From NCBI GenBank assembly GCA_903844665.1, contig CAIMUS010000057.1, positions 1 to 39,031 on the forward strand: a stretch of DNA of 39,031 bases, given 5' to 3'. Numbering within the stretch: the first letter of the stretch is position 1; each line of letters opens with the position of its first letter. Positions 15,348-33,348 of this stretch are shown here, piece by piece. The position numbers were made by a program, and so were the translations under genes. The notes below the pieces were generated by a model. That model did not search any database. It worked only from the letters and a program-made list of their open reading frames with translations, and was not told the origin of the DNA. Source of the stretch: an uncultured Pseudomonadota bacterium. GTDB taxonomy: Bacteria; Pseudomonadota; Gammaproteobacteria; Competibacterales; Competibacteraceae.

Positions 15348-17254
15348 GTCAAGTCGTGATCCTGGCAGGTGGTAAAGGGACGCGGTTGCGTGAGCGTCTC
15401 GGCAATCTTCCCAAGCCTCTCGTTGACATCTGCGGCATGCCGCTGCTCGAGCGCCAGATTCTGCTGGCAAAGCACTACGGTTACACCGACGTGCTAATCC
15501 TGGTGAATTACGCAGCCAATTACATCATGGATTTCTGTGCTTCAAAAAATAATTGGGGCTTGATCCTCAGTTGTATCGACGAGGGCGAACCGCGCGGCAC
15601 GGCTGGAGCGTTACTGTCGGCTTACGATTATCTTGCCGACGAATTTCTGGTAATGTATGGCGATACAATGCTGGATGTAAACTTGCAACGCTTGCACGAT
15701 TTCCACCGCTCCTATCCGGAAGCGGCAGCAACTGTGTTTCTACATCCCAATGACCATCCGTACGATTCGGATCTGGTGGATATCGACGAGGATAACCGCA
15801 TCACTGCCTTCTATCCCTATCCCCATGATCAATCAAGTTGTTATCCCAATCTGGTCAATGCGGCACTTTATTGCATACGAAAAGCGACATTGGAAGCGTT
15901 TCGGTATAGAAATGGCCTGCTCGATTTTGGCAAACACCTCTTCCCCGAAATGTTGGCAAAAGGCTATTTATTATTCGGCTACAACAGCCCAGAATATATC
16001 AAGGATTGCGGCACACCCGCACGACTCGACAAAGTCTGCGCCGATTTTATTTCAGGAAAAATCACCCGCGCCAACCTGGATCACCCCCAGCAAGCCATTT
16101 TTCTGGATCGCGACGGCACCATCAACCGTGAAGTGAACTACTTAATACATCATAATCAATTTGAGTTGCTTGAGGGAACAGAGCAGGCTATCAAACGGCT
16201 GAATGCTTCGGAATATCGCACAGTGGTTATCACAAACCAACCTGTGCTGGCACGCGGGGAATGCAATGTAGACGATCTAAAGTTGATCCATAACAAGATG
16301 GAAACTCTGCTCGGTGCACAAGGGGCGTTCATCGATCGCATTTACTACTGCCCTCATCATCCGCATAAGGGTTATGCTGGTGAGATTCCGGAATTGAAGA
16401 TTGACTGTGATTGTCGTAAGCCTAGACCTGGCATGATCGAACGGGCTGTGGCCGATCTCAACATTGCGCTTGATCAGTCGTGGCTGATAGGCGATACTAC
16501 GGTGGATCTGGCAACCGCTAGAGCGGCGGGGATCAGATCTATCCTGGTCGAGACCGGCTATGCCGGACTCGATTACCGCATCATGGTGACTCCTGATTTC
16601 GTGGCGCCCAATTTGCTGGCAGCGGTGGAGTTTATTCTGGACGGCTATCCGCGCCTCATGAAACTGTGCGGACCGCTCGCCGTGCCTATCGTCGCCGGGA
16701 CATTCGTCTTGGTCGGGGGGCTATCCCGCAGCGGCAAGAGTTCATTCGCAGGCGGGCTCAGGGCAGCCCTGCAAGCGCGTGGGCTTGACGCGGTAGTGCT
16801 CTCTCTCGACCGTTGGCTTAAGAATGCGCCGGAGCGTACGGAAGGGGTATTCGGAAGATACGACCTCGCCGCCGTAAAGAGCTTGATCGGCCAACTCGTA
16901 GGCCGGCAGGCGCCGCTGGAACTCAGTCTGCCTGTCTACCACAAGTTGGAACTCCGGCGTATCGAAGGAGCGGAGCGTGTCGAGATAACCCCTTCCACCG
17001 TGGTAATCTTCGAGGGAACGGTGGCGCTCGCCCTTACCGAAAAGCTGCCTGCGGGCACCCACACGTTCTACGTAGAAATGGACGAGAATGAGCGCAAACG
17101 ACGGGTCATACACGAATACCTGTTGCGGGGAAAATCGAGGAAGGAGGCGGAAGCGATCTACCTGTCACGCCAGCAGGATGAAGTACCCGTAGTGGCTGCC
17201 AGCGCCATTATTGCCAGGCAGAGGATAACCCTACCACTCCCACCTATCAATTAA
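15344..17254 (+). CDS. hddC: Three-domain enzyme: heptose-1-P nucleotidyltransferase (HddC-like) + HAD phosphatase (GmhB-like) + P-loop kinase
   Basis: A 636-residue protein started at ATG 15344, overlapping the epimerase stop. Domain 1 (about 1-240) is a sugar nucleotidyltransferase: VVILAGGKGTRLRERLG, LPKPLVDICG, MYGDTMLDVN and YIKDCGTPARLDKV, as in HddC. Domain 2 (about 250-425) is a GmhB-type HAD phosphatase: FLDRDGTINRE (nucleophile Asp255, Asp257), VVITNQPVLARGE, a zinc-loop-like CPHHPHKG...CDCRKPRPGM, and WLIGDTTVDLATARAAG. Domain 3 (about 452-636) is a uridine-kinase-like P-loop domain with Walker A GGLSRSGKSS, LSLDRWLK and VVIFEGTVAL. With GmhA (32782) and HddA (31782) the first two domains complete the GDP-D-glycero-alpha-D-manno-heptose pathway. 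The role of the third domain is unknown, because HddA already supplies the sugar kinase. Confidence 0.85.
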   Translation: MSQVVILAGGKGTRLRERLGNLPKPLVDICGMPLLERQILLAKHYGYTDVLILVNYAANYIMDFCASKNNWGLILSCIDEGEPRGTAGALLSAYDYLADEFLVMYGDTMLDVNLQRLHDFHRSYPEAAATVFLHPNDHPYDSDLVDIDEDNRITAFYPYPHDQSSCYPNLVNAALYCIRKATLEAFRYRNGLLDFGKHLFPEMLAKGYLLFGYNSPEYIKDCGTPARLDKVCADFISGKITRANLDHPQQAIFLDRDGTINREVNYLIHHNQFELLEGTEQAIKRLNASEYRTVVITNQPVLARGECNVDDLKLIHNKMETLLGAQGAFIDRIYYCPHHPHKGYAGEIPELKIDCDCRKPRPGMIERAVADLNIALDQSWLIGDTTVDLATARAAGIRSILVETGYAGLDYRIMVTPDFVAPNLLAAVEFILDGYPRLMKLCGPLAVPIVAGTFVLVGGLSRSGKSSFAGGLRAALQARGLDAVVLSLDRWLKNAPERTEGVFGRYDLAAVKSLIGQLVGRQAPLELSLPVYHKLELRRIEGAERVEITPSTVVIFEGTVALALTEKLPAGTHTFYVEMDENERKRRVIHEYLLRGKSRKEAEAIYLSRQQDEVPVVAASAIIARQRITLPLPPIN

Positions 17255-17270: not shown

Positions 17271-18104
17271 ATGCTCCTACCCCTGCCCATTGTCGAGCGC
17301 TGCATGATGCAATCTAATAGCTATGGCCAGTTATGCATTAATGACCTGAAATCCTCTTTCGCAGGATGGCGGGTCTGGTACACGCTCGCTGTAAACGATG
17401 TGAAGCGTCGCTATCGACGATCCCGTCTAGGCCAATTCTGGCTGACACTCAGCATGGCGTTGACCATCGGCGGCTTGGGTTTGGTATATTCGGTGCTTTT
17501 CAAGATGAATGTTGCGGAGTATCTGCCCTATATCTCGGTGACATTTGTCTTCTGGGCGATCATTTCCAGCGGGATCATCGAGTCCTGCTCGGCATTTATC
17601 GAGAGCGAAGGTTTAATTCTTCACACTACGATTCCGCGCGCAACGCCTGTACTCCGGGTACAACTGCGATTATGGCTGATCGCACTGCATAATTTCGCGA
17701 TCATTCCGGTCGTGTTTCTGGTTTTTCAGTTTCCGGTGAATTGGAATCTGCTGTGGCTGATTCCTGGATTGGCTCTAGTCGCTGCAAACATCTTATGGAT
17801 CGGCTATTTTTTAGCGATCGTGTCCGCCAGGTTCAGAGATGTCCCCCAAATTGTTGCGAGCATAATGCAAATTGCTTTCTTTATTACACCCATAATGTTC
17901 AGACCGACCCAGCTCGGACATAATGGTTTAGTCCTGATGCTCAACCCGTTCGCCTATTTGCTGGAGATTGTGCGCGATCCGCTGTTAGGCACTACTCCAA
18001 ATGCCCTGGCCTTCGTCGTGTGTGCGATCATGGCCGTAGTTGGATGTCTTCTGATTCTGCCATTTGCGGGGCGTTATGCGCCGCGGGTCGTATATTGGTT
18101 GTAA
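17271..18104 (+). CDS. wzm: ABC-2 type polysaccharide exporter permease
   Basis: A 277-residue integral membrane protein with six helices and the short amphipathic N-terminal segment of Wzm proteins. Landmarks are WYTLAVNDVKRRYRRSRLGQ, which is the conserved cytoplasmic entry motif, FWLTLSMALTIGGLGLVY as helix 1, VSARFRDVPQIVASIMQIAF, FITPIMF and LNPFAYLLEIVRDPLLG. Together with Wzt it moves undecaprenyl-diphosphate-linked glycan across the cytoplasmic membrane. The first ATG (17271) is used here; ATG 17304 or 17307 would also suit, since the first twelve residues are not conserved. It follows the three-domain heptose enzyme by 16 bases and precedes wzt by seven. Confidence 0.9.
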   Translation: MLLPLPIVERCMMQSNSYGQLCINDLKSSFAGWRVWYTLAVNDVKRRYRRSRLGQFWLTLSMALTIGGLGLVYSVLFKMNVAEYLPYISVTFVFWAIISSGIIESCSAFIESEGLILHTTIPRATPVLRVQLRLWLIALHNFAIIPVVFLVFQFPVNWNLLWLIPGLALVAANILWIGYFLAIVSARFRDVPQIVASIMQIAFFITPIMFRPTQLGHNGLVLMLNPFAYLLEIVRDPLLGTTPNALAFVVCAIMAVVGCLLILPFAGRYAPRVVYWL

Positions 18105-18111
18105 CAACAAG

Positions 18112-18915
18112 ATGAACCTTCTGAACGTTGCCTTTACTAAGCCAACCATGTCGGACTCTCTTCCTTATATTCACCTTGACAATATCTCAGTCATACTTCC
18201 GATCTACAACGCGCGAGGGCGTGCGCTCAAGGCGGAGTTATTGTGGCGAACAGTCGGAGGCAATCTGGATAGCTCCACAGATCCCCATATTGTTATCGTC
18301 CGTGCTTTGGATGGAATCACGATTAATCTTGAACACGGCGACCGGATGGCCTTGATCGGTCGAAATGGCTCTGGAAAAACCACGCTGTTGCGCGTTTTCG
18401 CCGGAATTTATCCGCCCACCGGAGGCGCCATTTCGATCCATGGAAGGGTATCGGCATTGACGGACATGTCCATGGGCATGGATATGGAAGCCACCGGTTA
18501 TGAGAACATCTTTCTTCGCGGTGTGGTTATGGGCCTAAGCGCAGCACAGGCGGAATCGCTGATCCCCGATATCGAGCAGTTCACCGAGTTGGGTGAATAT
18601 CTGTGCCTTCCCGTACGGACCTATTCTACCGGCATGATGCTGCGGTTGGCCTTCGCCATCAGTACCGCCGTTCAACCGGAGATTCTGTTGCTGGATGAGA
18701 TGGTGGGCGCTGGAGATTCCGCCTTCGTTGCGAAGGCTAGAGACCGCATTGAAGGTCTGATTCACAAATCAAGCATTATGGTGCTTGCTTCTCATGCCGA
18801 CCAGTTAGTCACTCGATTGTGTACGCGCGCCATTTGGATGGATAGCGGTCGGGTACGTGCATTCGGCCCTGTGGAACAGGTCCTGGCGGATTACCACACT
18901 GAAGTTGGCTCTTGA
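18112..18915 (+). CDS. wzt: ABC exporter ATPase without a carbohydrate-binding domain
   Basis: A 267-residue nucleotide-binding subunit. Walker A is GRNGSGKTT (residues 83-91), the signature is YSTGMMLRLAF (171-181, in place of LSGGQ), Walker B is ILLLDEMVGAGD (191-202) and the switch His is in LASHADQL. The start at ATG 18112 follows the Wzm stop by seven bases; ATG 18148 is an alternative. The protein ends soon after the ATPase fold, so it lacks the C-terminal carbohydrate-binding module that Wzt has in capped O-antigen systems such as E. coli O9a. It is thus closer to KpsT or to Wzt of Klebsiella O1/O2-type systems. This is notable because capping-type methyltransferases are encoded downstream. 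Confidence 0.9.
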   Translation: MNLLNVAFTKPTMSDSLPYIHLDNISVILPIYNARGRALKAELLWRTVGGNLDSSTDPHIVIVRALDGITINLEHGDRMALIGRNGSGKTTLLRVFAGIYPPTGGAISIHGRVSALTDMSMGMDMEATGYENIFLRGVVMGLSAAQAESLIPDIEQFTELGEYLCLPVRTYSTGMMLRLAFAISTAVQPEILLLDEMVGAGDSAFVAKARDRIEGLIHKSSIMVLASHADQLVTRLCTRAIWMDSGRVRAFGPVEQVLADYHTEVGS

Positions 18916-19667: not shown

Positions 19668-19762
19668 GTGTTTGATGCGATACTTAAAAGTTTGATTTGG
19701 GTCCCCATAATGAGGGCCGTTCGCAGCACCCCAGTAAGAATCGTTTACTAAGGCTATCAAGT

Positions 19763-20503
19763 ATGTTTAATATATTCAAAAAACGAACCATTTTCGATCT
19801 AGGAGTCAATGATGGAAGCGATACAGCGTTTTATCTTGAGAAAGGATTTCGCGTTGTTGCAGTGGAGGCGAATCCTATCCTTGCGGAAGCAGTTCGCCTG
19901 CGTTTTTGCAACGAAATTCAGGCGGGGACACTAGTCTTACTGAATGTTGGTATTTGGCATGATAATAGGACGTTGCCGTTTTATATAAATCAAGCCAATG
20001 ATCATTGGAGCTCATTCGATCCTGAGTATGGATGTCGCAACGGCACTCCATTTACCGTAGTTGATGTCCCATGCATGACGATTGTCCAATTGTTAGAGAG
20101 CTACGGTTTGCCTTACTATATGAAGATCGATATCGAAGGAGCCGATAAGGTAGTGCTCGGACAGATGCAGAAAACACAATGGCGACCTAAGTATATCTCA
20201 GTGGAAGAGTACGGTGTAGTTGCAATCGATGATTTGCGAAGCCTTGGATACAAGAAATTCGCTATCGTTTCGCAGAGAGATAAAACTGTAAAAATAGCAC
20301 CAAAGATACCTCTCGAGGGTCGCGGGTTTTTCCTTAATCGCCAATTCAATGGAACTGTCAGCGGTGTCTTTGGGCGAGAAATACAAGATAAGTGGCTCGC
20401 ATACGATGATGCCCGTATGCATTTTATCAGATCGGTTCGTCGGGAAGACTACACCTGGGTTGGCCCTGATTACGAATGGTTCGACATTCACGCAAAGTTC
20501 TAA
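19763..20503 (+). CDS. FkbM-family SAM methyltransferase
   Basis: A 246-residue protein from ATG 19763 (the longer frame from 19697 adds residues without similarity). Motif I is TIFDLGVNDGSDTAFYLEKG (about residues 9-28), followed by VVAVEANPILAEAV with the acidic residue that binds the SAM ribose. LLNVGIWHDNRTLPFY, VPCMTIVQLLESYGLPYYMK and IDIEGADKVVL are the characteristic FkbM blocks; the KIDIEG motif holds the metal or SAM contact Asp. FkbM enzymes O-methylate sugar hydroxyls. In this locus it most likely methylates a residue of the glycan. It stands between the IS3/ghost region and a 355-base gap, without close partners. Confidence 0.85.
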   Translation: MFNIFKKRTIFDLGVNDGSDTAFYLEKGFRVVAVEANPILAEAVRLRFCNEIQAGTLVLLNVGIWHDNRTLPFYINQANDHWSSFDPEYGCRNGTPFTVVDVPCMTIVQLLESYGLPYYMKIDIEGADKVVLGQMQKTQWRPKYISVEEYGVVAIDDLRSLGYKKFAIVSQRDKTVKIAPKIPLEGRGFFLNRQFNGTVSGVFGREIQDKWLAYDDARMHFIRSVRREDYTWVGPDYEWFDIHAKF

Positions 20504-20858
20504 GGTTACTCGATTTCAATGTAATTTGGTTGTTTTTGGAGGGGGTTGAATGAAAAACGAGGGCTTGGTAATACAAATATGCCGAATTATGGAATATAGG
20601 GCAGCCGCATAAGGTTTAACAACATATTTTTTGCTCTATATTTTCATACTCGAATATAGCAATTGTAATGGAAAATTCTCTGATATTGCCACAATCCGAC
20701 TACCGAAATGTTGGGCAACGATGAAGACGCTACCCCCATGGCTTGACAGCGTCTCAATCTGAGCGTTTCATTTGTCCAGAATTGTCGGAAGTGTACATTG
20801 AAATTCCTAATATCCACAACTTTGCGAAATTGCTACGAGCAATTTGGAGGTTGGAAAA
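20504..20858. other. Intergenic gap with a 20-codon ORF and weak promoter-like sites
   Basis: No full gene is present. At 20550-20612 an ATG preceded by a strong ribosome-binding site (ggagggggttga) opens a 20-codon frame (MKNEGLVIQICRIMEYRAAA). This could be a leader peptide or, more likely, the start of a decayed gene. A -35-like ttgaca at 20743 has only tttcat at the -10 position. A 7-base inverted pair (agacgct 20725, agcgtct 20748) overlaps it. The rest is AT-rich DNA in which I see nothing. Confidence 0.4.
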
Positions 20859-21530
20859 ATGTCCATAATTAATGACGCATTAAAAACATCCAGAATATCA
20901 GAAGTCAGAGATGCTCTGACGAATGCGCACATTTCTAGCCCCTATTATGACAATGCTGAGTCCTGGCTTGGCACCTTCTGGGATGAAGACACAATATTTC
21001 GCAAATGCTTCAGGAGGCTTGATCTAACCGCGACACTTGACTTCGCCTGTGGTCACGGGAGACATACTGCACAATGCCATTATGAGGTCGGATCAATCAT
21101 TCTCACAGATGTCAACCAATCAAATCTCGAATTCTGCAGACAGAGATTTAGCACAAGTTCAAAAGTCAAATATGTGTTGTGCAATGGAAAAGATCTATCA
21201 GGCATACCAAGTACAACACTTACATCGCTCTTCTCTTATAATGCAATGGTACATTTTGAGGCATTGGATGTAGTATCCTATGTGTTTGAATTTGCTCGTA
21301 TCTTGGTGCCCGGAGGGCGCGCTTTGTTGCACTATTCGGTCAACAACTCCAATCCTGCCTCGGATTTCCGTGATGCCCCTCACTGGAGAAACTATTTTTC
21401 GGAGAGTCTTATGCACCATGTTGCCAATAGGGCGGGTTTCCAGGTATTATCTGCTCACAAGTTTAGCTGGCCGCCCGGTTCTCCGGGACGAGAAATTGAT
21501 GGCTTGGTGCTACTAGAAAAGCCGATATGA
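20859..21530 (+). CDS. Class I SAM-dependent methyltransferase
   Basis: A 223-residue methyltransferase. The start ATG 20859 is set by a good ribosome site (ttggagg, 8 bases upstream); the TTG at 20844 lies inside that site and is unlikely. Motif I is TLDFACGHGRHTAQ (about residues 58-71), the beta-2 acidic residue is in IILTDVNQSNLEF, motif IV is TLTSLFSYNAMVHFEALDVV and motif V-VI is LVPGGRALLHYSVNN. The late HWRNYFSESLMHHVANRAGF resembles small-molecule and sugar methyltransferases of Methyltransf_11/25 type. The substrate is unknown; methylation of a glycan residue is inferred from the locus. It is followed by a repeat-rich gap. Confidence 0.8.
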   Translation: MSIINDALKTSRISEVRDALTNAHISSPYYDNAESWLGTFWDEDTIFRKCFRRLDLTATLDFACGHGRHTAQCHYEVGSIILTDVNQSNLEFCRQRFSTSSKVKYVLCNGKDLSGIPSTTLTSLFSYNAMVHFEALDVVSYVFEFARILVPGGRALLHYSVNNSNPASDFRDAPHWRNYFSESLMHHVANRAGFQVLSAHKFSWPPGSPGREIDGLVLLEKPI

Positions 21531-21849: not shown

Positions 21850-21945
21850 TACTATTTCCTGGAAGCGATACGCGCACCCGTGCTGGGGAAGGAGGTGAGG
21901 AGTCACATCGACGAGGTTTTACTGTTTCATAACAAAGGTGCTTGA
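21850..21945 (+). pseudogene. C-terminal tail of a lost GT2-GT4 copy
   Basis: The frame ending at TGA 21943-21945 reads FLEAIRAPVLGKEVRSHIDE, then VLLFHNKGA. This is nearly the same as the end of the intact gene at 21948-24143 (KAIRAPLLGKEVGSHIDE, VLLSHDKGV). The junction to the next ATG (ttgagtATG) has the same two-base spacing as between the two intact genes (taagtATG). The rest of the copy is missing upstream. This is the trace of a further repeat unit of the tandem array that was deleted. Confidence 0.8.
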
Positions 21946-21947
21946 GT

Positions 21948-24143
21948 ATGAAGCGTCCAGGCACGTATGAGTTCGACGTCTCCGTCGTTCTAAATCTGCA
22001 CCGGGAGGCAGTCTACGTCGTCCGCACTCTCCGCTCCCTCAGCGAGGCGGCGAGCTATGCGTCGAATTGTGGGCTCCATGTAGAACTGGTGATCGTCTTC
22101 GACCGGTCGGACGACGCAACCCGTGCCGTAACTGAGTCGGCGGACAAGTTTGGTTTTGAGCGGGTGACTTCCATCGAGGTTGATCACGGATCTCTTGGCC
22201 TGTCCAGGAATTCTGGGATTGCTGTGGCGAGCGGGGAGTATTTATGGTTAGCCGATGCCGACGACCTGGTGTCGTTCAACTGCATAGAGCGCATGCATTT
22301 GGTTGCGCAGACCGAGGAGAAAACGGTGGTTATCCCGGAGTATTTGTTGGCGTTCGGGGTTGATTATTTTGTCCTCCGTTATTTCGATGATGCGGTGGTA
22401 GAGAGCGCTGACTTCGTATACGGGCACCCATATACTCTCCGCTTCATCCGCAGGAATGCCTTCGAGAATCTTCAATTTTTGGATCTTCGGCTCTCCAAGG
22501 GCTTTGCTTACGAAGACTGGCACCTGAATTGCGAGCTACGCGCTCGTGGCTATCGCTTCCGGATCGCGCCAAAGACCCTGTTTTTCTACCGGCAAAGAGA
22601 AGGAAGCCTGCTGAGACAGGCTAATGCGATGTCGGTTCGGCAGATTCCCCATTCCACGCTATTTGATCCCAACCACTTCGTCCGCATCGTGGAGGCGGAA
22701 AGACTGGCGCGTAACGAAGTTGACTTCCTGCGTCGGCGGGCCGAAGCGCGAATCTGCGTGCCTCGCGATGAACTGTTGGGAGACGCAACGTCCATGGAAC
22801 TCGTGACGGCTGCGGTGCAGATCGACCCGGGCATCAACCTGTACATGATCGAGCGGGGAAGCAATTGGACCAACGTCTTCCCGGATCAGCACTGGGGCCA
22901 CAGCTTTTTCGATGTATGCAGGCTCGTCAGATCCGAGAAGTTCACGGATGTGTTCCTACTCCCCTGGCTAATTGCTGGAGGGGCTGACCGCTTCATCCTC
23001 GACGTAATGACCTCTCTTCAGGAGTTGGAAGCTTCGGCGAACTTTCTTGTGATCTCGGGCGAGTCCATCGCCAAGTATGCCAAGCATACCTGGTTGCACA
23101 AACTCCCGAAGCAGTCAGTCTTCCTGGATATATACAACTTCTTTCCCTCGCTCTCGGAAGATGAGCGCGACCTGCTCGCCCTGCGTACGATCCTTGCGTG
23201 CGGCGATGGGGTGCGGCTGCATCTGAAACAAAGTGGCTTCGTGAATCGCATAATCAATAAGTTTTCTCATTGCCTGGGCGCGTTCAAAGCGATATTTTAT
23301 CGCTTCTCCGATCAACGCTACGTCCGTGGTGGCGAAGTTTTTGAACTCGGCTGGGGTTTCGACTTCATTTCTAATCACCTACCGCAACTTGGGCTGCTCG
23401 TCACGGATCACGAGCGAATCGCGAACAGTGATCGGCTGAGATTTGGAGTGGAACAGCAGAAGTGGCAATGTCTCTATGCAAAGTTCCTTTCCAAGCCCCC
23501 ACGTGGGGATGTCAAACCTTCAATGCGCCTGCTTTGGGTATCCCGGGTTTGCGCTGAGAAACGTCCGAAGCTCCTGGCGGGCATCGCGTCCGTTGCCTCG
23601 CGTTTGCTGCCGGGCATCTCGATTGATGCTTATGGAGCCCCTGAAAGCGGCGTGGATCTCAGCACAACCTTTGGTGGCGCCGAGGCATTGCGCTACAGGG
23701 GCAAGTTCCATGACTTCGACGAATTGAAACCCGAGGCGTACGACGCATTGATTTACACCACTCGCTTCGACGGGCTTCCGATTGTGGTCCTCGAGGCTAT
23801 GAGTTGGGGGCTACCCGTCATCGCGCCGGACGTGGGGGGGCTGGCTGAGACCGTGATGGACGGAAAGACGGGCTACCTCTTACCTGACCTCCAAGATGAC
23901 GACGCCCTGTGCGCTGCTTACGCGCAGGCGATTCAGAGGCTTTATGAGGACTGGAGCGCGACAATGGCCATGGGGCAAGCCGCGCAGGAACTTATTCGTC
24001 AACGACATAGCCCTGGCGCCTACAAACGCCGGGTAGCCGAGATATTTCTAGAGGAGCAGAAAGCGATACGTGCACCCTTGCTTGGTAAGGAGGTAGGGAG
24101 CCACATCGATGAAGTCTTGCTGTCTCATGACAAGGGTGTTTAA
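21948..24143 (+). CDS. GT2-GT4 bifunctional glycosyltransferase, tandem copy 1
   Basis: A 731-residue protein. The start ATG 21948 is chosen by alignment with copy 2; a TTG at 21942 would add two residues. The N-terminal part (about 1-260) is a GT2-like GT-A domain: DVSVVLNLHREAVYVVRTL, VELVIVFDRSDDATRAV and GEYLWLADADDLVS with the metal-binding DADD. The C-terminal part (about 520-700) is a GT4 domain: MRLLWVSRVCAEKRPKLL, ALIYTTRFDGLPIVVLEAMS with the E-x7-E region, and GLPVIAPDVGGLAETV. The middle segment (about 300-500) is similar in both copies and has no family I can name. It probably adds two sugars to a growing chain. Expressed in the same direction as copy 2, two bases away. GC-rich compared with 19-21 kb. 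Confidence 0.85.
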   Translation: MKRPGTYEFDVSVVLNLHREAVYVVRTLRSLSEAASYASNCGLHVELVIVFDRSDDATRAVTESADKFGFERVTSIEVDHGSLGLSRNSGIAVASGEYLWLADADDLVSFNCIERMHLVAQTEEKTVVIPEYLLAFGVDYFVLRYFDDAVVESADFVYGHPYTLRFIRRNAFENLQFLDLRLSKGFAYEDWHLNCELRARGYRFRIAPKTLFFYRQREGSLLRQANAMSVRQIPHSTLFDPNHFVRIVEAERLARNEVDFLRRRAEARICVPRDELLGDATSMELVTAAVQIDPGINLYMIERGSNWTNVFPDQHWGHSFFDVCRLVRSEKFTDVFLLPWLIAGGADRFILDVMTSLQELEASANFLVISGESIAKYAKHTWLHKLPKQSVFLDIYNFFPSLSEDERDLLALRTILACGDGVRLHLKQSGFVNRIINKFSHCLGAFKAIFYRFSDQRYVRGGEVFELGWGFDFISNHLPQLGLLVTDHERIANSDRLRFGVEQQKWQCLYAKFLSKPPRGDVKPSMRLLWVSRVCAEKRPKLLAGIASVASRLLPGISIDAYGAPESGVDLSTTFGGAEALRYRGKFHDFDELKPEAYDALIYTTRFDGLPIVVLEAMSWGLPVIAPDVGGLAETVMDGKTGYLLPDLQDDDALCAAYAQAIQRLYEDWSATMAMGQAAQELIRQRHSPGAYKRRVAEIFLEEQKAIRAPLLGKEVGSHIDEVLLSHDKGV

Positions 24144-24145
24144 GT

Positions 24146-26266
24146 ATGAGGCGTCCAGACAAGTATGAGTTCGACGTCTCCGTCATTCTAAATCTTCACC
24201 GTGAGGCGATCTACGTCGTCCGCACTCTCCGCTCCCTCAGCGAGGCGGCGAGCTATGCGTCGCAGTGTGGATTCCGAGTAGAACTGGTGATCGTCTTCGA
24301 CCAGTCGGACGACGCAACCCGGTCTGCAGCCGAGGCGGCAGAAAAGTTTGGTTTTGATCGGGTGACTTCCATTGAGGTTGAACACGGATCTCTCGGCCTG
24401 TCTCGAAACTCCGGGATCGCCGTGGCGAGTGGCGAGTATGTGTGGCTGGTCGATGCCGACGACTTGGTGTCATCCAACTGCATAGAGCGTATGCATTTGG
24501 TCGCGCAGACCGAAGAGAGGGTGACCGTTTTCCCGGAGTATTTGTTGGCGTTCGGAGTTGCTTACTTTGTCACCCGGCATTTCGATGATTCGGTGGTCGA
24601 GACCGCGGACTTCGTTTATGGGCACCCATACATCTCCCATCTCTTCATCCGCAAGGACGCTTTCGAGAACCTGCAATTTTCGGATCTGCGACTTTCCAAG
24701 GGCTTTGCCTACGAAGACTGGCACCTGAATTGCGAGCTACGCGCTCGCGGCTATCGCTTCCGGATCGCGCCAAAGACCGTGTTCTTCTATCGCCAAAGAG
24801 AGGGAAGTTTGCTGAAACAGGCCAATGCGATTTCGGTTCGACAGATTCCCCACTCCACGCTATTTGAGCCCAACCACTTTGTGCGCACCGTGGAGGTGGA
24901 AAGACTGGCGCGTAATGAAGTTGACTTCCTGCGCCGACGGGCAGATGCGCGAGCTAGCCTTCCTCGCGATGAATTGTTGGGAGATGCAACATGCATGAAA
25001 CTTGTGGCGGCCGCGGTGCAGATCGACCCGGGCATTAACCTAAACATGATCGAGCGGGGAGGCAACTGGATCAACGTCTTCCCGGATCAACACTGGGGTC
25101 ACAGCTTTTTCGATGTCTGCAGGCTTGTGGGGACCGAGAAGTTCACTGATATAGTCCTGCTCCCCGGGCTATCCGAGGGAGGGGGCGAGCGCTTCATCCT
25201 CGATGTGATGACCTCTCTCCACGAGTTGGAAGCTTCCGTGAACTTTCTTGTGATCTCGGGCGAGTCCCACGCCAAGCATACTTGGCTACATAAGCTCCCA
25301 AATCAGGCAGTTTTCCTAGACCTGTACAACTCATTTCCAAGGCTCACGGAAGATGAACGAGACCAGATCACCCTGCGCACGATCCTTTCTTGCGCTTGCG
25401 GTGATGGTACGCGCCTCCATTTGAAACCAAGTTGGTTCGCGCATCGTCTATTCAACAAGTTTTCTCATTGCCTGGGCGCGCTTAAAACCATATATTATCG
25501 CTTCTGCGATTGGCGCTACGTCCTTGGTGGCGAAATTTTCGAAGTTGGATCGGGCTTCGACATCATTTCTACTCAGCTCCCGCAGTTTTGGCTGCTCGTC
25601 ACGGATCACGAGCGGATCGCGATCACTGATCGGCGACGCTTTGGGCTTGAACAGCGGAAGTGGCAGTGCCTCTATGCAAAGTTCCTTTCCAAGCCGCCCC
25701 ATGGGGATGTTCAATCCACAATGCGCCTGTTGTGGGCGTCTCGGGTATGCGCTCAGAAACGTCCGGAAATCGTGATCGGCATTGCGTCCGCTGCCTCGCG
25801 TTTGCTGCCAGGCATCTCGATTGATGCTTATGGAGCACCTGAAAACGACGTGGATATCAGCGCGACCTTTGGCGGCGCCGAGGCATTACACTACAAGGGC
25901 GCGTATCTCGACTTCGATGACTTGAAACCCGAGGCGTACGACGCCTTTATTTACACCACCCGCTTCGATGGGCTTCCGAATGTGGTCCTCGAGGCCATGA
26001 GTTGGGGGCTACCCGTCATCGCGCCGGACGTGGGCGGGCTGGCTGAGGCCGTGATGGACGGAAAGACCGGCTACCTCTTACCCGACCTCCAAGATGACGA
26101 CGCCATGTGCGCCGCTTACGCACAGGCGATTCAGAAGCTGTATCAGGACTGGAGCGCGACATTGGCCATGGGGCAAGCCGCGCAGGAACTTGTGCGTCAG
26201 CGCCATAGCCCGGACGCCTACAGACGCCGGGTCGCCGCGATATTTCTAGAGGAGCAGACGGTATGA
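24146..26266 (+). CDS. GT2-GT4 bifunctional glycosyltransferase, tandem copy 2
   Basis: A 706-residue paralogue of the preceding gene, alike over the whole length at the DNA and protein level (for example YEFDVSVILNLHREAIYVV, then GFAYEDWHLNCELRARGYRF in both). The GT2 DADD (WLVDADDLVSSN) and the GT4 block (YTTRFDGLPNVVLEAMSWGL, PVIAPDVGGLAEAV) are intact. Differences cluster in the middle segment (GLSEGGGERFILDVM against IAGGADRFILDVM, and the loss of a few residues near SHAKHTW). It ends at IFLEEQTV and lacks the 26-residue tail of copy 1. The stop overlaps the next methyltransferase gene by ATGA, so translation is coupled. The two copies may differ in donor or linkage. Confidence 0.85.
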   Translation: MRRPDKYEFDVSVILNLHREAIYVVRTLRSLSEAASYASQCGFRVELVIVFDQSDDATRSAAEAAEKFGFDRVTSIEVEHGSLGLSRNSGIAVASGEYVWLVDADDLVSSNCIERMHLVAQTEERVTVFPEYLLAFGVAYFVTRHFDDSVVETADFVYGHPYISHLFIRKDAFENLQFSDLRLSKGFAYEDWHLNCELRARGYRFRIAPKTVFFYRQREGSLLKQANAISVRQIPHSTLFEPNHFVRTVEVERLARNEVDFLRRRADARASLPRDELLGDATCMKLVAAAVQIDPGINLNMIERGGNWINVFPDQHWGHSFFDVCRLVGTEKFTDIVLLPGLSEGGGERFILDVMTSLHELEASVNFLVISGESHAKHTWLHKLPNQAVFLDLYNSFPRLTEDERDQITLRTILSCACGDGTRLHLKPSWFAHRLFNKFSHCLGALKTIYYRFCDWRYVLGGEIFEVGSGFDIISTQLPQFWLLVTDHERIAITDRRRFGLEQRKWQCLYAKFLSKPPHGDVQSTMRLLWASRVCAQKRPEIVIGIASAASRLLPGISIDAYGAPENDVDISATFGGAEALHYKGAYLDFDDLKPEAYDAFIYTTRFDGLPNVVLEAMSWGLPVIAPDVGGLAEAVMDGKTGYLLPDLQDDDAMCAAYAQAIQKLYQDWSATLAMGQAAQELVRQRHSPDAYRRRVAAIFLEEQTV

Positions 26267-27750
26267 CTGTGGAGCGTCTTCATTTCGGCCATGGGGCAGA
26301 ACCGCTTAACGCGATGGATGCAGCCGAACACTTTGTGAGATACGCCGCCGCGAAGGGGCTGGCGCCGGGAAGGCGCGTGCTGGACATCGCCTGCGGAGAA
26401 GGCTACGGATCCTGGCTCCTGAGAGAGTGGGGCGCCAGCGAGGTTGTCGGCGTCGATGTGTCCGATGAGGCGATTGCTGCCGCAAATACCCAATTCGCGC
26501 GGGAGGGAGTGCGCTTTCTCCTCAGCGATGCGAGCCGTGTCTGCGATCTGCTTGGCGAGGAACGCTTCGATCTCATCGTCTGTTTCGAAACCATCGAGCA
26601 CGTCCCAGACCCCGCCTCACTCTTACGAGCGATCAGGTTGCTCGCCTCGCCCGAAGCGATCATTCTGGTGAGCTGCCCAAACGATCATGTTGCGACAGAG
26701 CCGGGAGAGAGTAACCCGTTCCATCTGCGAAAATACACATTCGCGGAGTTCAAGTCCCTGGCCGAATCCTGCCTCGACCCGGCCCAGGCCTGGCTGTTGG
26801 GCGCCAATGCTCAAGGCTTTGCCCTTATTCAGGAAGGGTATGCTCTGGCCGAACAAATCTGGACCGACCCAGCGGCATTTCTCAAGTCTGAGATGCTGCA
26901 TGCCGCCTATGTTCTACCAAGCCAGGTCAACATCCGCCCTGCCATCGACACAGTGTTATTCTACATGGGCGTTTGGGGTACTACGGACATCGCTCCTTTG
27001 GCCGCAGTATCGATGCAGTCCTACGCCGCCTTCATCGAGTCTTGGCGTGCCATAGAATGGTTCAGGGCGCAGTTAGCCGAGGCGGACGTGCGCCTGGCCG
27101 ACACCAAGACCCAGCTTGATGGAGCGCTAGAGCAGCTCGCGGGAGTTAATGAAAGACTGGCTGAAAAAGAGGCACAACTTGCTAAGCTGCATACCGAGCA
27201 TGAGATCGCGTGCAGCAAGGCTGGAGATCTCCAGAGGGAGTTGGCCGAGGCGGACGTGCGCCTGGCCGACACCAAGACTCAGCTTGATGGAGCGCTAGCT
27301 CAGCTCGCGGGAGTTAATGAAAGACTGGCTGAAAAAGAGGCTCAACTCGCTAAGTTGAATACCGAACATGAGTTCGCGTGCAGCAAGGCTGGAGATCTCC
27401 AGAGGGAGGTTGATCGTCTGCGCCGCAGATTGTTTGCGCTCAACGACATCGTGGCCGCTCTTGGGACCGAGCAATCGCGTTGGCATGAGGCGCAAGCCCG
27501 AGCGGACGAGGCCATTCGATTACGGGACGAAAAGGAGGCTGAACTGCAACGCATGCAAGCCCGAGCGGACGAGGCCATTCGATTACGGGACGAAAAGGAG
27601 GCTGAACTGCAACGCATCTTAGCCTCTCGGGGACGCCGCCTTCTGGACGCGCTCTATTACCGTCTTTATCGAATCCCGTATCTGGGTGGTCTAATGAACT
27701 CGATTCGTCGTGTTGTAGGAAAGGGACTTAGATGGATTCGCGGTCGATGA
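26263..27750 (+). CDS. SAM methyltransferase with long C-terminal coiled coil (WbdD-like architecture)
   Basis: A 495-residue protein. Residues about 15-220 are a class I methyltransferase: RVLDIACGEGYGSWLL, VVGVDVSDEAIAAA, FDLIVCFETIEHVPDP and ESNPFHLRKYTFAEF. From about 265 to 440 the chain is a coiled coil built of a 56-residue unit repeated twice (27073-27240 and 27241-27408) and a 21-residue unit repeated twice (27493-27555 and 27556-27618); 56 and 21 are 8 and 3 heptads. The C-terminus is basic and amphipathic (ALYYRLYRIPYLGGLMNSIR) and may bind the membrane. In E. coli O9a, WbdD joins a capping methyltransferase to a coiled coil that measures chain length. This protein has no kinase domain. 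A role as cap and ruler is inference. It overlaps the genes on both sides or nearly so. Confidence 0.85.
   Translation: MTVERLHFGHGAEPLNAMDAAEHFVRYAAAKGLAPGRRVLDIACGEGYGSWLLREWGASEVVGVDVSDEAIAAANTQFAREGVRFLLSDASRVCDLLGEERFDLIVCFETIEHVPDPASLLRAIRLLASPEAIILVSCPNDHVATEPGESNPFHLRKYTFAEFKSLAESCLDPAQAWLLGANAQGFALIQEGYALAEQIWTDPAAFLKSEMLHAAYVLPSQVNIRPAIDTVLFYMGVWGTTDIAPLAAVSMQSYAAFIESWRAIEWFRAQLAEADVRLADTKTQLDGALEQLAGVNERLAEKEAQLAKLHTEHEIACSKAGDLQRELAEADVRLADTKTQLDGALAQLAGVNERLAEKEAQLAKLNTEHEFACSKAGDLQREVDRLRRRLFALNDIVAALGTEQSRWHEAQARADEAIRLRDEKEAELQRMQARADEAIRLRDEKEAELQRILASRGRRLLDALYYRLYRIPYLGGLMNSIRRVVGKGLRWIRGR
27073..27408 (+). repeat. 2 x 168-bp direct repeat encoding 8-heptad coiled-coil units
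   Basis: Units 27073-27240 and 27241-27408 differ at only a handful of bases. Each encodes 56 residues starting LAEADVRLADTKTQL and ending ACSKAGDLQRE. The length is a whole number of heptads and of codons, so gain or loss of a unit keeps both the reading frame and the coiled-coil register. Confidence 0.9.
27493..27618 (+). repeat. 2 x 63-bp direct repeat encoding 3-heptad coiled-coil units
   Basis: Units 27493-27555 and 27556-27618 are identical except for the last base. Each encodes QARADEAIRLRDEKEAELQR plus one residue (21 residues, three heptads). Near identity at the DNA level points to recent duplication. Confidence 0.9.
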
Positions 27751-27848
27751 GTGTTCGTATCTGGGAGGCTTTGTGCGTGGCCCAAAACGAAAATTGCGTC
27801 TTGATGGATATACTTGACATAGCTACGATTAACAGCAGGAAAACCTCC

Positions 27849-28676
27849 ATGAATCTCACCGAAAATCGTGTCTTTGCGGATTACTTCAACTTTCTCGTTT
27901 CCTCTGGAGGACAGCAACTTTCACGGGCGATCTCCCTCTGGCGCTCGGGTGTCGAGTCCGAAGGTGACTTCTGGTCGCGCTGGTTCGAAACCAAGGGACT
28001 CGAATGGCCGGAAGACTATGCCATCCGAATCAGACCTGCACCGCTCGCGCCTTGGCTCGCGGAACTGCTTCCCAAACAGCACGGATCTGAGGTGGCTAAG
28101 ATTCTCGACGTCGGTGCAGGTCCCATCACGAAGGCAGGAACATTTCTCCCGGATCGACCGATCGAGGTAGTGGCGTGTGATCCACTCGCTCGGGTCTACG
28201 ACAAGATCATCGAACGCTGTGGTGTAAAGGTACCTCTGAGAACCGTCTTCTCGTTCGCTGAGGATCTAAGCGCTCGGTTTGAAGAGTCATCGTTTGACCT
28301 CGTATGCTGCACGAATGCTCTGGATCACTCGATCGAACCCGCCTGGGGCATTCTGGAGATGCTGATCGTTGTCAAGAAGGGAGGATTCGTATTTTTAAGC
28401 CACCGCCGCAACGAGGCCGAGTTTGAAAACTATGCGGGCCTACATCAGTGGAACTTGGATGAGGCTGACGGCGACTTCATCGTCTGGACTAAGGAGCGGA
28501 CGATCAACATTTCGGAGCTCACGGGCGGGTTTGCGGATATTCAATGCAGCGTTTCCGGTGACGGGCTCACCACTCGGATCAGAAAGACCAATAATATACC
28601 AATCGATTCAAACAGTTACCACCGAAAGTTAAGGGCCGCACTCCTCAATGCCTTGATTGATGATAGCGGCAGGTGA
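27849..28676 (+). CDS. SAM-dependent methyltransferase
   Basis: A 275-residue protein from ATG 27849, chosen because aggaaa lies nine bases upstream and the conserved sequence begins here (NRVFADYFNFLVSSGGQQ). The open frame extends to ATG 27747, which would overlap the preceding stop (ATGA) and add 34 residues without similarity; the true start is uncertain. The N-terminal part has LSRAISLWRSGVESEGDFW and WFETKGLEWPEDY, then motif I AKILDVGAGPITKAGTFL, the acidic beta-2 end VVACDPLARVYD, FDLVCCTNALDHSIEP and VVKKGGFVFLSHRRNEAE. The substrate is unknown; glycan methylation is likely from context. It lies between the two coiled-coil methyltransferase genes and is followed by a MITE-like insertion. 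Confidence 0.8.
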   Translation: MNLTENRVFADYFNFLVSSGGQQLSRAISLWRSGVESEGDFWSRWFETKGLEWPEDYAIRIRPAPLAPWLAELLPKQHGSEVAKILDVGAGPITKAGTFLPDRPIEVVACDPLARVYDKIIERCGVKVPLRTVFSFAEDLSARFEESSFDLVCCTNALDHSIEPAWGILEMLIVVKKGGFVFLSHRRNEAEFENYAGLHQWNLDEADGDFIVWTKERTINISELTGGFADIQCSVSGDGLTTRIRKTNNIPIDSNSYHRKLRAALLNALIDDSGR

Positions 28677-28971: not shown

Positions 28972-30279
28972 ATGATAATACATGAGCGTTTTACCCTGAG
29001 TGACATTGACTGGCCGGAATTCCTGTTTCACATGCAACGCTATGCGCTGGCCCAGCGCTTCGCTCGCGGATTACAGGTGCTTGATTGCGCTTGTGGTGAG
29101 GGATACGGCACAGCTTACATAGCACAGGAGGCGGTGCATGTCACGGGTCTGGACATATCCATAGAGGCCATCACGCAATGTCGGGAAACTTTCATCGGGG
29201 TCGATAACATCGATTTCCAGATTGCCGACATGGCGCACATTCCGTTCCCCGAAGCTTCGTTCGATCTGGTTGTTTGTTTCGAGGCAATCGAACACATCGA
29301 TGCCGACAAGCAGGACCGGGCTCTTGCCGAAATGCGGCGTGTGCTAAAGCCGGAAGGAATCCTGCTGATCTCGACCCCGGATCGACTGGTCGGTGAAAAG
29401 CGCGGATATGCCAATCCATTCCATGTCGCCGAGATGACGATCACCGAGTTCTCCGAAAAGCTCGGTCGACATTTCCCCCATGTCGCTCTGTATAGTCAGG
29501 AACTGAACATGGTATCGGCGATGTGGTCTCTCGATACGAACGGGCAATCCGAAGGTATAGGCGAATGGATCGACCAGACCATACTCGAAGCGGATCGCAG
29601 CTTGCGCCCGATGGCTGGTAACAATGCCTTCTACTATGTCTTTGCAATCTGCAGTTCGAACCCGATCACGTTGCCGCATGCACACTATTTCTCATCGTAT
29701 CGGCGTGAACCAGCCCAGCAACTGTGGAACCGCATCGATGCCGCCGAGCAAAGGCTCCAGCAAGAAGTGGTTGAGTTACAGCGGCAACTGGTGGCAGCGG
29801 ATGAGCGGGCAGCCAATGCGGATCAAACGGCTTCCCGCCTGCGTGAGCAGTTCCTGATCGCGGAAAAGAATAACACAATGCTCGCGCGCGAGATTGTTGC
29901 CCTTGAACGGAATCGCGCCGAACTCGGCGAGGTACGCCAACAGCTCGACGCCACCTGTGCTGAACTCGGCGAGGTACGCCAACAGCTCGACGCCACCTGT
30001 GCTGAACTCGGCGAGGTACGCCAACAGCTCGACGCCACCTGTGCCGAACTCGGCGAGGTACGCCAACAGTTCGACGCCACCTGTGCCGAACTCGGCGAGG
30101 TACGCCAACAGCTCGACGCGGCTCGTGATCGGCTGCAGGTGACCGAGGCATTTTACGGATCGCGAGTGGGGCGCCTGGCACGACGGTATTACGCCATTTA
30201 CGATACGCCCCTAATAGGAGCAGTGATGCGCGCGATGCGCGCGGTCGTTCGAACTCTGCGTCCTGGACACGCACGATGA
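28972..30279 (+). CDS. SAM methyltransferase with C-terminal coiled coil made of 14-residue repeats
   Basis: A 435-residue protein. The methyltransferase part (about 1-225) shows LQVLDCACGEGYGTAYIAQE, VTGLDISIEAITQCR, FDLVVCFEAIEHIDADKQDR, KPEGILLISTPDR and YANPFHVAEMTITEF, close in type to the protein at 26263. From about 250 a coiled coil follows; residues 316-385 consist of five units of AELGEVRQQLDATC (two heptads each). The C-terminus (YGSRVGRLARRYYAIYDTPL, then IGAVMRAMRAVVRTLR) matches the end of the 26263 protein in pattern (SRGRRLL..YY..Y..P..G..M...R.VV). The two proteins therefore share one design with different ruler segments. Its stop overlaps the next frame by ATGA. Confidence 0.85.
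   Translation: MIIHERFTLSDIDWPEFLFHMQRYALAQRFARGLQVLDCACGEGYGTAYIAQEAVHVTGLDISIEAITQCRETFIGVDNIDFQIADMAHIPFPEASFDLVVCFEAIEHIDADKQDRALAEMRRVLKPEGILLISTPDRLVGEKRGYANPFHVAEMTITEFSEKLGRHFPHVALYSQELNMVSAMWSLDTNGQSEGIGEWIDQTILEADRSLRPMAGNNAFYYVFAICSSNPITLPHAHYFSSYRREPAQQLWNRIDAAEQRLQQEVVELQRQLVAADERAANADQTASRLREQFLIAEKNNTMLAREIVALERNRAELGEVRQQLDATCAELGEVRQQLDATCAELGEVRQQLDATCAELGEVRQQFDATCAELGEVRQQLDAARDRLQVTEAFYGSRVGRLARRYYAIYDTPLIGAVMRAMRAVVRTLRPGHAR
29917..30126 (+). repeat. 5 x 42-bp direct repeat encoding 2-heptad coiled-coil units
   Basis: Five consecutive 42-base units (starts 29917, 29959, 30001, 30043, 30085), each opening gccgaactcggcgaggtacg or a one-base variant (gct for gcc). The first four encode AELGEVRQQLDATC (one has F for L); the last ends in DAAR. 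Differences between units are single bases, so the array is young and could change unit number readily. Confidence 0.95.
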
Positions 30280-31781: not shown

Positions 31782-32762
31782 ATGATTATTAGCCGAACCC
31801 CCTTGCGTATGAGTTTTGTTGGTGGCGGTAGTGATCTGCCCAGCTTCTACCAGAAACATGGTGGGGCGGTGATCAGCACCGCAATCAATAAATACGTTTA
31901 CGTAAATGTCAATAAAAAATTTGACAGTGGCATCCGTATCGCTTACTCTAAGACTGAGGAAGTCTCCAGTGTATCCCGGATAGAGCACAAGATTGTCCGT
32001 GCCACCATGGAATTCCTTGGCTTGCAAGGAGGGATTGAGATCACTACCATTGCCGATATTCCATCCAAGGGAACTGGTCTAGGGTCGTCCAGCACTTTTA
32101 CTGTGGGCTTACTGCATGCGCTCAATGCGTATAACGGTCAGTACGTCTCGAGCGAACAGCTTGGAGCCGATGCCAGCCATATTGAGATCGATGTGTGTGG
32201 TGAACCTATTGGCAAGCAAGATCAATATGCTGCAGCATTCGGGGGGTTCAACCTGATCGAATTTAATCCAGACGAATCGGTAGTCATAACCCCGATCATC
32301 TGTGCCAGGGAAACCTTGCAACAAATTGAGGAGAGCATACTCGTTTTCTATACTGGCATCACTCGTAGTGCCTCTGCGCTGCTCAAGCAACAATCAGAGG
32401 AAGTTATCAACAGTATAAGCAAACAACAGACACTGCGGAGTATGGTGGATCTTACCTATCAGCTATGGGCCGAGATCCAGAAAAACAATACCCTTGCCTT
32501 TGGTGAAATTCTGCATGAAAACTGGATGCTTAAAAAAGGAATCACTGCTGGAATCAGTACTAGTGACATCGATCAGTGGTATGAGCTTGCCAGAAAGACA
32601 GGCGCGATCGGAGGGAAGATTCTAGGTGCCGGAGCAGGAGGATTCCTAATGTTGTACGCGCCCCCCGATTCGCATCCAGCGATTAAGGCAGCACTCTCCA
32701 TGCTAAGACCTGTCGATATTGGTTTTGAGCGATTGGGTAGCCGTATTATTTTCTACCATTAA
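31782..32762 (+). CDS. hddA: D-glycero-alpha-D-manno-heptose 7-phosphate kinase
   Basis: A 326-residue GHMP-family kinase. It opens with IISRTPLRMSFVGGGSDLPS, the signature start of HddA-like sugar kinases. The ATP-binding motif 2 is PSKGTGLGSSSTFTVGLLHA (about residues 91-110) and motif 3 is GGKILGAGAGGFLML (about 282-296). GKQDQYAAAFGGFN is also typical. It phosphorylates D-glycero-D-manno-heptose 7-phosphate at C1 to give the 1,7-bisphosphate, the substrate of the GmhB-like HAD domain encoded at 15344. GmhA is encoded 19 bases downstream. The 105-base gap in front may hold the promoter of the hddA-gmhA pair, but no clear box is seen. Confidence 0.9.
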   Translation: MIISRTPLRMSFVGGGSDLPSFYQKHGGAVISTAINKYVYVNVNKKFDSGIRIAYSKTEEVSSVSRIEHKIVRATMEFLGLQGGIEITTIADIPSKGTGLGSSSTFTVGLLHALNAYNGQYVSSEQLGADASHIEIDVCGEPIGKQDQYAAAFGGFNLIEFNPDESVVITPIICARETLQQIEESILVFYTGITRSASALLKQQSEEVINSISKQQTLRSMVDLTYQLWAEIQKNNTLAFGEILHENWMLKKGITAGISTSDIDQWYELARKTGAIGGKILGAGAGGFLMLYAPPDSHPAIKAALSMLRPVDIGFERLGSRIIFYH

Positions 32763-32781
32763 ACTTCGGAGATTAATACCC

Positions 32782-33348
32782 ATGAATACCTACATAGGAT
32801 CAGCGGCAAACTACCTGGATAGACTCAGCAAAGTCTTGTCAGGGCTTGATCTGCAGCAAATTGACCAGGCAATTGCAATTATTGCTAATGCCTGGCAGAA
32901 CGAGCGGCAAATCATAACCCTAGGTAATGGTGGCAGCTCACTTACCGCCCTGCATTATATCAATGATTGGAATAAAAGTATCTATCTTGCTACCGGTAAA
33001 CCGTTCCGGGGGCGTAGTCTGATAGATAACATAGGCTTGATAATGGCTTATGCCAACGATGTTTCATTCCAAGATGTCTTTGTTGAGCAACTGAAAAATA
33101 TTCTACAGCCTCGGGATCTGGTTATTGCTATTTCTGGCAGTGGAAATTCTGAAAATGTAATTCGCGCCGTCAACTATGCGAATGAACAAGACGCAATCAC
33201 GCTAGGAATTTGCGGTTATAATGGAGGTAAGCTCAAACAAATTACACAGCACTACCTATGGGTGAATGTCAACGATATGCAGTTATCGGAAGATATTCAT
33301 TCCATTTTTGGTCATATTGTAATGCAAAAGCTGTGTGGATATTTTTGA
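32782..33348 (+). CDS. gmhA: Sedoheptulose 7-phosphate isomerase (SIS domain)
   Basis: A 188-residue protein from ATG 32782 (ggaga ribosome site); the longer frame from 32719 overlaps hddA and is discarded. It has the SIS-domain fold of GmhA: QIITLGNGGSSLTALHYIND (about residues 46-65), LIMAYANDVSFQDVFVEQL (about 90-108), VIAISGSGNSENVIRAVNYA (about 114-133), GGKLKQITQHYLWV and EDIHSIFGHIVMQKLC at the end, with the C-terminal His seen in GmhA. It turns sedoheptulose 7-phosphate into D-glycero-D-manno-heptose 7-phosphate, the first step of heptose activation. The usual GmhA A-D-S sequence after the GGS is changed to LTALH, as in some SIS paralogues, so assignment rests partly on the neighbouring hddA. 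Confidence 0.88.
   Translation: MNTYIGSAANYLDRLSKVLSGLDLQQIDQAIAIIANAWQNERQIITLGNGGSSLTALHYINDWNKSIYLATGKPFRGRSLIDNIGLIMAYANDVSFQDVFVEQLKNILQPRDLVIAISGSGNSENVIRAVNYANEQDAITLGICGYNGGKLKQITQHYLWVNVNDMQLSEDIHSIFGHIVMQKLCGYF

What the first reader, a model, noticed from the sequence alone, without database searches (positions are those of the whole stretch)
27073..27618. Methyltransferase with coiled coil built from whole-heptad DNA repeats (56- and 21-residue units)
The 26263-27750 protein has two sets of near-identical in-frame direct repeats, 168 bp x 2 and 63 bp x 2. Both unit lengths are multiples of 7 residues, so unit gain or loss lengthens or shortens the coiled coil without breaking its register. 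In E. coli O9a, WbdD uses a coiled coil attached to a capping methyltransferase as a molecular ruler for glycan length (established). A ruler whose length can change by recombination would be a genetic dial for polysaccharide length (inference).
Basis: partly seen in the sequence, partly recalled or inferred. Interest (0 to 1): 0.85.

Follow-up and report, generated by a model that had tools for sequence, protein, structure and literature searches.

The report
Sugar-chain ruler built from repeats
This is a bacterial enzyme that probably caps surface sugar chains and measures their length with a rod-like protein arm built from copied, in-register DNA repeats; in a comparable plasmid gene, otherwise identical copies were found with 4, 6, 7 or 9 repeats, so the measuring arm really does change length in nature.

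Summary
The 26263-27750 gene carries a 168-bp x2 array (158/168 identical) and a 63-bp x2 array (63/63), which are 56 and 21 codons. The segment is a predicted coiled coil (residues 265-456) whose heptad register runs unbroken through each array.

The protein is not WbdD (no kinase domain, only local similarity). It is homologous along its length to the E. coli O101/O162 methyltransferase, and its short Wzm/Wzt match that system's (39% and 44%). Published work shows that enzyme is needed for the terminal O-methyl cap and affects chain length, and suggests it is a ruler.

No second strain of the window's organism is available, so copy-number change could not be tested there. In an analogous Wzm/Wzt-linked methyltransferase on P. 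aeruginosa plasmids, seven records carry 4, 4, 4, 6, 7, 7 and 9 copies of an identical 84-bp (28-residue) unit, with no substitution in the other 2001 bp 5' of the array. E. coli WbdD shows no length change. That repeat number sets glycan length remains inference. I rate this a new variant of a known kind.

The parts
26263..27750 (+). Methyltransferase-coiled-coil protein (495 aa, P0001), the proposed capping enzyme and ruler
   Evidence: Translation; Pfam Methyltransf_23 and related; full-length similarity to the E. coli O101-type MT
26311..26802 (+). Class I SAM-dependent methyltransferase domain (about residues 17-180)
   Evidence: Pfam; AlphaFold2 pLDDT mostly above 90 over most of this stretch; Foldseek matches to solved class I MTases
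27055..27630 (+). Predicted coiled coil (residues 265-456, 192 aa, about 28 nm if one continuous helix)
   Evidence: COILS-type score; 3.48-residue hydrophobic period; helices 244-367 and 373-454 (252-367 and 373-468)
27071..27406 (+). 168-bp (56-residue, 8-heptad) tandem duplication, 94% identical
27492..27617 (+). 63-bp (21-residue, 3-heptad) tandem duplication, 100% identical
27628..27747 (+). C-terminal basic helical tail (residues 456-495), candidate membrane or polymerase docking segment; a similar tail ends P0002 and the E. coli O101-type MT
   Evidence: alignment; AlphaFold2 helices 456-470 and 472-494; function inferred
28972..30279 (+). Second methyltransferase-coiled-coil protein (435 aa, P0002), paralogous to P0001 (28% over 392 columns)
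29713..30150 (+). Predicted coiled coil of P0002 (residues 248-393, COILS gap at 343-357)
   Evidence: 3.48-residue period
29917..30119 (+). 42-bp (14-residue, 2-heptad) array, about 4.8 copies, 97% match
17271..18104 (+). Wzm-type ABC-2 permease, 39% identical to the E. coli O89/O101/O162 Wzm
18064..18915 (+). Wzt-type ATPase, short form without Wzt_C, 44% identical to the E. coli O89/O101/O162 Wzt
21942..24143 (+). GT2-GT4 dual glycosyltransferase, candidate polymerase
   Evidence: Pfam; 84.8% DNA identity to the next gene
24146..26266 (+). GT2-GT4 dual glycosyltransferase, tandem paralogue directly upstream of P0001

Best explanation
P0001 (probably with its paralogue P0002) is a chain-terminating or capping methyltransferase of an ABC-transporter-dependent surface polysaccharide cluster. 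The N-terminal SAM domain methylates the non-reducing end of the growing chain. The long coiled coil holds that domain away from the membrane-side glycosyltransferases. The C-terminal helical tail docks it at the membrane or polymerase. The arm was lengthened by in-frame tandem duplications of 56, 21 and 14 residues, all whole heptads, which add about 8, 3 and 2 nm without breaking the coil. Such arrays can in principle gain or lose units by slippage or recombination, giving an evolvable length dial. Shown: repeats, frame, heptad register, homology to the O101-type MT and its transporter, and unit-by-unit variation in an analogous plasmid gene. Inferred: ruler function here, change of copy number in this species, and its effect on glycan length.
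For: Arrays and register. Full-length similarity to the E. coli O101-type MT (31% over 375 columns, E 4e-50) plus Wzm (39%) and Wzt (44%) of the same system. The published E. coli enzyme is required for terminal O-methylation, its disruption changes chain-length distribution, and its authors propose a ruler: PMC13168486. Coiled-coil terminators set chain length in E. coli O9a and K. pneumoniae O12 (PMC11231755; PMC5082667). Natural unit-number series in the P. aeruginosa plasmid MTase gene next to Wzm and a Wzt with Wzt_C: 4, 4, 4, 6, 7, 7, 9 identical 84-bp units with 0 substitutions in the 2001 bp of gene 5' of the array and 3.4 kb upstream. Further near-identical units in relatives' coiled coils: 39 aa (L047) and 46 aa (L220). 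A 14-residue indel separates two E. coli O101-type MT alleles.
Against: No second isolate of this organism shows a different copy number. The Wzt lacks the domain that couples capping to export in the O9 system. No kinase. WbdD and the E. coli O101-type MT show no unit gain or loss among near-identical alleles in the rows listed. The P. aeruginosa repeat array is not called a coiled coil by the COILS-type score, and its 3.5-residue period is not better than unit-preserving shuffles (74 of 500). The genome has many unrelated coding tandem repeats, so the duplications may not be selected. Five methyltransferases in the cluster leave open which one caps.
Confidence: 0.62

Rival explanations
1. 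The coiled coil is an oligomerisation or tethering arm whose exact length does not matter. The repeats are neutral by-products of a repeat-prone genome, kept only because whole-heptad changes are the ones a coiled coil tolerates.
For: The genome is rich in coding tandem repeats of unrelated kinds. Coiled-coil length differs widely between relatives, from 54 to 192 residues by the COILS-type score in the P0001-like group. Any coiled coil would tolerate preferentially 7n units.
Against: Coiled-coil length of terminators sets chain length in the two systems where it was tested (PMC11231755, PMC5082667). Both coiled-coil methyltransferase genes of this cluster carry arrays.
Confidence: 0.27
2. P0001 and P0002 methylate internal or side-branch sugars (for example heptose) and do not terminate chains. 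The coiled coil only recruits them to the assembly complex.
For: The cluster holds three further methyltransferases (19697, 20844, 27732) and GDP-heptose-type genes, so several methylations are likely. Wzt lacks a cap-binding domain.
Against: The full-length E. coli relative acts at the chain end, also with a Wzt lacking Wzt_C (PMC13168486).
Confidence: 0.08
3. The repeats are an assembly artefact of the draft genome.
For: 348-contig draft; identical 63-bp and near-identical 42-bp copies are hard for short reads.
Against: The 168-bp copies differ at 10 sites and the reading frame is intact. The 63-bp pair spans only 126 bp. Comparable arrays exist in complete plasmid records.
Confidence: 0.03

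Closest known systems
E. coli O101/O162/Onovel32 rfb methyltransferase (PMC13168486)
   Same: MTase domain plus C-terminal coiled coil plus short basic tail; 31% identity along the length; Wzm and Wzt of the same family, Wzt also without Wzt_C
   Different: The E. coli coiled coil is much shorter (about 80 residues called, against 192) and has no tandem DNA repeats; the neighbouring dual glycosyltransferase shows only weak local similarity
E. coli O9a WbdD coiled-coil ruler
   Same: Methyltransferase at one end of a long coiled coil in a Wzm/Wzt cluster; membrane-side C-terminal helices
   Different: WbdD also has a kinase and its Wzt has Wzt_C; only a short local MTase match to P0001; no repeat arrays, constant gene length in the full-length E. 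coli rows listed
P. aeruginosa plasmid MTase-repeat protein (WP_136342213 and alleles)
   Same: MTase of the same broad family, C-terminal array of 28-residue (7n) units, next to Wzm/Wzt; unit number varies 4-9
   Different: Two MTase domains and a long middle region precede the array; the array is not called a coiled coil by the COILS-type score; its Wzt carries Wzt_C
K. pneumoniae O12 WbbB and O4/O7 coiled-coil terminators (PMC11231755)
   Same: Coiled coil separating terminator from polymerase modules
   Different: Different terminator chemistry; glycosyltransferases fused in O12 and O7

Membership tests
WbdD-type kinase-methyltransferase terminator | SAM methyltransferase domain | tested here: met
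   Pfam and AlphaFold2 model
WbdD-type kinase-methyltransferase terminator | Kinase domain between MTase and coiled coil | tested here: not met
   No kinase match; the coiled coil starts at about residue 265, soon after the MTase
WbdD-type kinase-methyltransferase terminator | Long coiled coil followed by membrane-side helices | tested here: met
   the membrane contact itself was not tested
WbdD-type kinase-methyltransferase terminator | Partner Wzt with C-terminal carbohydrate-binding domain | tested here: not met
   Window Wzt matches only ATPase models; the E. coli HS O9 Wzt matches Wzt_C
E. coli O101/O162-type methyltransferase group | Full-length homology: MTase, linker, coiled coil, basic tail | tested here: met
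   31% identity over 375 columns, E 4e-50; tail aligned in the multiple alignment
E. coli O101/O162-type methyltransferase group | Genetic link to short Wzm/Wzt of the same family | tested here: met
   39% and 44% identity, no Wzt_C
E. coli O101/O162-type methyltransferase group | Needed for terminal O-methylation of the polysaccharide | not testable with these tools
   Shown for E. coli in PMC13168486; needs an experiment here
Coiled-coil molecular ruler of glycan length | Coiled-coil length determines modal chain length | not testable with these tools
   Established for O9a and O12 by others (PMC11231755); inferred here
Variable-number tandem repeat locus | Copy number differs between closely related strains | tested here: inconclusive
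   No close relative of the window's genome is held; shown for the P. aeruginosa analogue only

The most novel reading that the evidence does not exclude
A class of glycan-length rulers is encoded by genuinely variable-number tandem repeats: strains change surface-polysaccharide length stepwise and reversibly by gaining or losing coil-compatible DNA units in the capping enzyme, with no other mutation. The window's two rulers would be one instance and the P. aeruginosa plasmid alleles with 4-9 units another.
Probability: 0.35. Interest if true: 0.88.

Novelty: new variant of a known kind. Interest (0 to 1): 0.7.

Why it matters
Coiled-coil rulers are an accepted way to set polysaccharide length, but their length has been treated as a fixed, serotype-specific property. 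Repeat-built rulers would let one simple, reversible kind of mutation tune chain length, which bears on phage reception and envelope properties. The P. aeruginosa plasmid records already form a natural length series (4, 6, 7, 9 units) in an otherwise identical sequence, so the relation between arm length and chain length can be tested with existing isolates. I found no paper describing repeat-number variation in such a ruler, within the open-licence library searched.

Tried and rejected
1. WbdD as the direct relative: rejected; only a short local MTase match and no kinase.
2. Copy-number variation within the window's own lineage: untestable; 144 relatives held no orthologue and no second genome of the genus was seen, and nucleotide search of plasmids gave nothing.
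3. Copy-number variation in E. coli WbdD (210 genomes covering at least 80%) and the O101-type MT (313 genomes): no unit gain or loss in the rows listed; for the MT mainly insertion-sequence and 1-bp disruptions. Two diverged MT alleles differ by 14 residues; I could not tell which O-serotype the shorter allele represents, so I draw no conclusion about chain length from it.
4. 'All units are multiples of 7' as a rule: not universal. Units of 39 and 46 residues occur in relatives. Both are 4 mod 7, which fits a stutter (period 3.54). All six units being 0 or 4 mod 7 has chance 0.0005, but that grouping was chosen after seeing the data.
5. Near-identical units as a feature special to these genes: weakened, because the genome has many coding tandem repeats such as TPR-like ones.
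6. Syntenic dual glycosyltransferase in E. coli and Rhizobium: only short local similarity.
7. Orthologues of the P. aeruginosa protein in 399 genomes of the phylum: one distant match; near-identical repeats were found only in the loci already named.
8. Single-sequence AlphaFold2 left the MTase unresolved; the 26-sequence alignment solved that.

Full report
OBSERVATION. The 26263-27750 gene encodes a 495-residue protein. It carries two tandem in-frame duplications: 168 bp at 27071-27238 and 27239-27406 (158/168 identical) and 63 bp at 27492-27554 and 27555-27617 (identical). The ten differences in the long repeat fall in nine codons, three of them changing the residue, so that duplication is not brand new. 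The units are 56, 21 and 14 codons, all multiples of seven.

COILED COIL. A COILS-type score, with the matrix transcribed from memory and checked against the other proteins, calls residues 265-456 of P0001 continuously. The register is unbroken within each array and there is one three-residue jump (a stutter) between them. It finds coil in the expected region of E. coli WbdD and none in the glycosyltransferases. Hydrophobic periodicity peaks at 3.48 residues in P0001 and P0002, against 0 and 1 of 500 shuffles as strong. AlphaFold2 with a 26-sequence alignment gives a confident class I methyltransferase core and long helices 244-367 and 373-454, then two C-terminal helices. Foldseek matches are ordinary SAM methyltransferases.

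WHAT IT IS. Pfam finds only a methyltransferase in P0001, with no kinase. Similarity to WbdD is a short local match. A protein search of annotated plasmids found two near full-length relatives: a Rhizobium rosettiformans plasmid protein and an E. coli plasmid-borne O89/O101/O162-type methyltransferase. P0001 aligns with the E. coli protein at 31% over 375 columns, E 4e-50, and the multiple alignment brings the basic C-terminal tails together. The window's Wzm and Wzt are 39% and 44% identical to the Wzm and Wzt of that E. coli cluster, and both Wzt proteins lack the Wzt_C domain that the O9 Wzt has. PMC13168486 reports that in E. [quoted passage not shown] This is a better anchor than WbdD. 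P0002 is a paralogue of P0001 (28% over 392 columns), so the cluster has two methyltransferases with repeat-built arms.

DOES UNIT NUMBER CHANGE IN NATURE? Not testable in the window's lineage: no orthologue in 144 relatives. It is visible in an analogue. On P. aeruginosa plasmids, a methyltransferase gene next to galE, Wzm and a Wzt carrying Wzt_C ends in an array of an 84-bp, 28-residue unit. Seven plasmid records carry 4 (RW109, 2017-45-169, 2021CK-01020), 6 (2017-45-85), 7 (PABL048, PS1793) and 9 (AR439) units. The 2001 bp of gene before the array and 3.4 kb upstream show no substitution at all. In 2017-45-85 an insertion sequence just downstream alters the end of the gene. The records may belong to one plasmid family, so this is recent variation. 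If helical throughout, one unit is about 4 nm. The caveat is that the COILS-type score does not call this array a coiled coil, and its 3.5-residue period is not better than shuffled units (74 of 500).

GENERALITY. Near-identical tandem units inside the arm region were found in five proteins among roughly two dozen coil-bearing relatives: P0001, P0002, a class relative with 39-residue units (L047), Lichenihabitans with a 46-residue unit (134/138 identical), and the P. aeruginosa protein. The count is approximate because duplicates were collapsed by a rough rule and the sample follows homology to P0001. The 39- and 46-residue units are 4 mod 7, and those arms have a 3.54-residue period, as expected for coils with one stutter per unit. 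So the constraint is coil compatibility, not strictly whole heptads. By contrast, WbdD is constant in the full-length E. coli rows listed, and near-identical E. coli O101-type alleles show no unit change. Two diverged alleles differ by a 14-residue indel in the coil.

LIMITS. The genome carries many unrelated coding tandem repeats, so duplication pressure is general, and neutrality of arm length remains a serious rival. The missing Wzt_C means capping and export may not be coupled as in O9a. Which of the five methyltransferases caps the chain is unknown. No paper on variable-number repeats in such rulers was found in the open-licence library; subscription papers, including the original ruler paper, are not held.

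VERDICT. Real feature, sensible interpretation, partly supported and extended. New variant of a known kind: a coiled-coil terminator whose arm is built of tandem DNA units, with direct evidence from an analogue that unit number varies among otherwise identical genes.

Noticed in passing
   Followed up: yes
21942-24143 and 24146-26266: Two adjacent GT2-GT4 dual glycosyltransferase genes, 84.8% identical in DNA over 2.1 kb: a gene-scale tandem duplication next to the repeat-built ruler genes.
   Followed up: partly
10598-14362: 1254-aa protein with WsaF_N and WsaF_C-like glycosyltransferase domains at its C-terminal end and other GT4-type matches upstream.
   Followed up: no
15269-17254, 31782-32762, 32719-33348: Nucleotidyltransferase-HAD fusion, GHMP kinase and SIS isomerase, which together look like a GDP-heptose-type sugar pathway; a similar set sits beside an MTase-GT protein on a Methylovirgula plasmid.
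   Followed up: no
19697-20503, 20844-21530, 27732-28676: Three more methyltransferases (one FkbM type) in the same cluster, five in all.
   Followed up: no
8488-8537 and 38812-38843: Short perfect tandem repeats, 25 bp x2 and 16 bp x2.
   Followed up: no
other contigs of the same genome (L116-L215): Genome rich in coding tandem repeats, including TPR-like and low-complexity arrays.
   Followed up: partly
L080-L085 and L078: P. aeruginosa plasmid gene with 4-9 identical 84-bp units; one record has an IS5-family insertion just downstream that alters the last residue.
   Followed up: yes
L079:3001-4149 versus L076:10001-11191: E. coli O101-type MT alleles differ by a 14-residue (two-heptad) indel in the coiled coil.
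   Followed up: partly
L220:3932-6976: Lichenihabitans MTase protein with a long coiled coil containing a 46-residue tandem duplication.
   Followed up: yes
L031 and L007/L011: More diverged arms that by eye look built of repeated 21-residue units.
   Followed up: no
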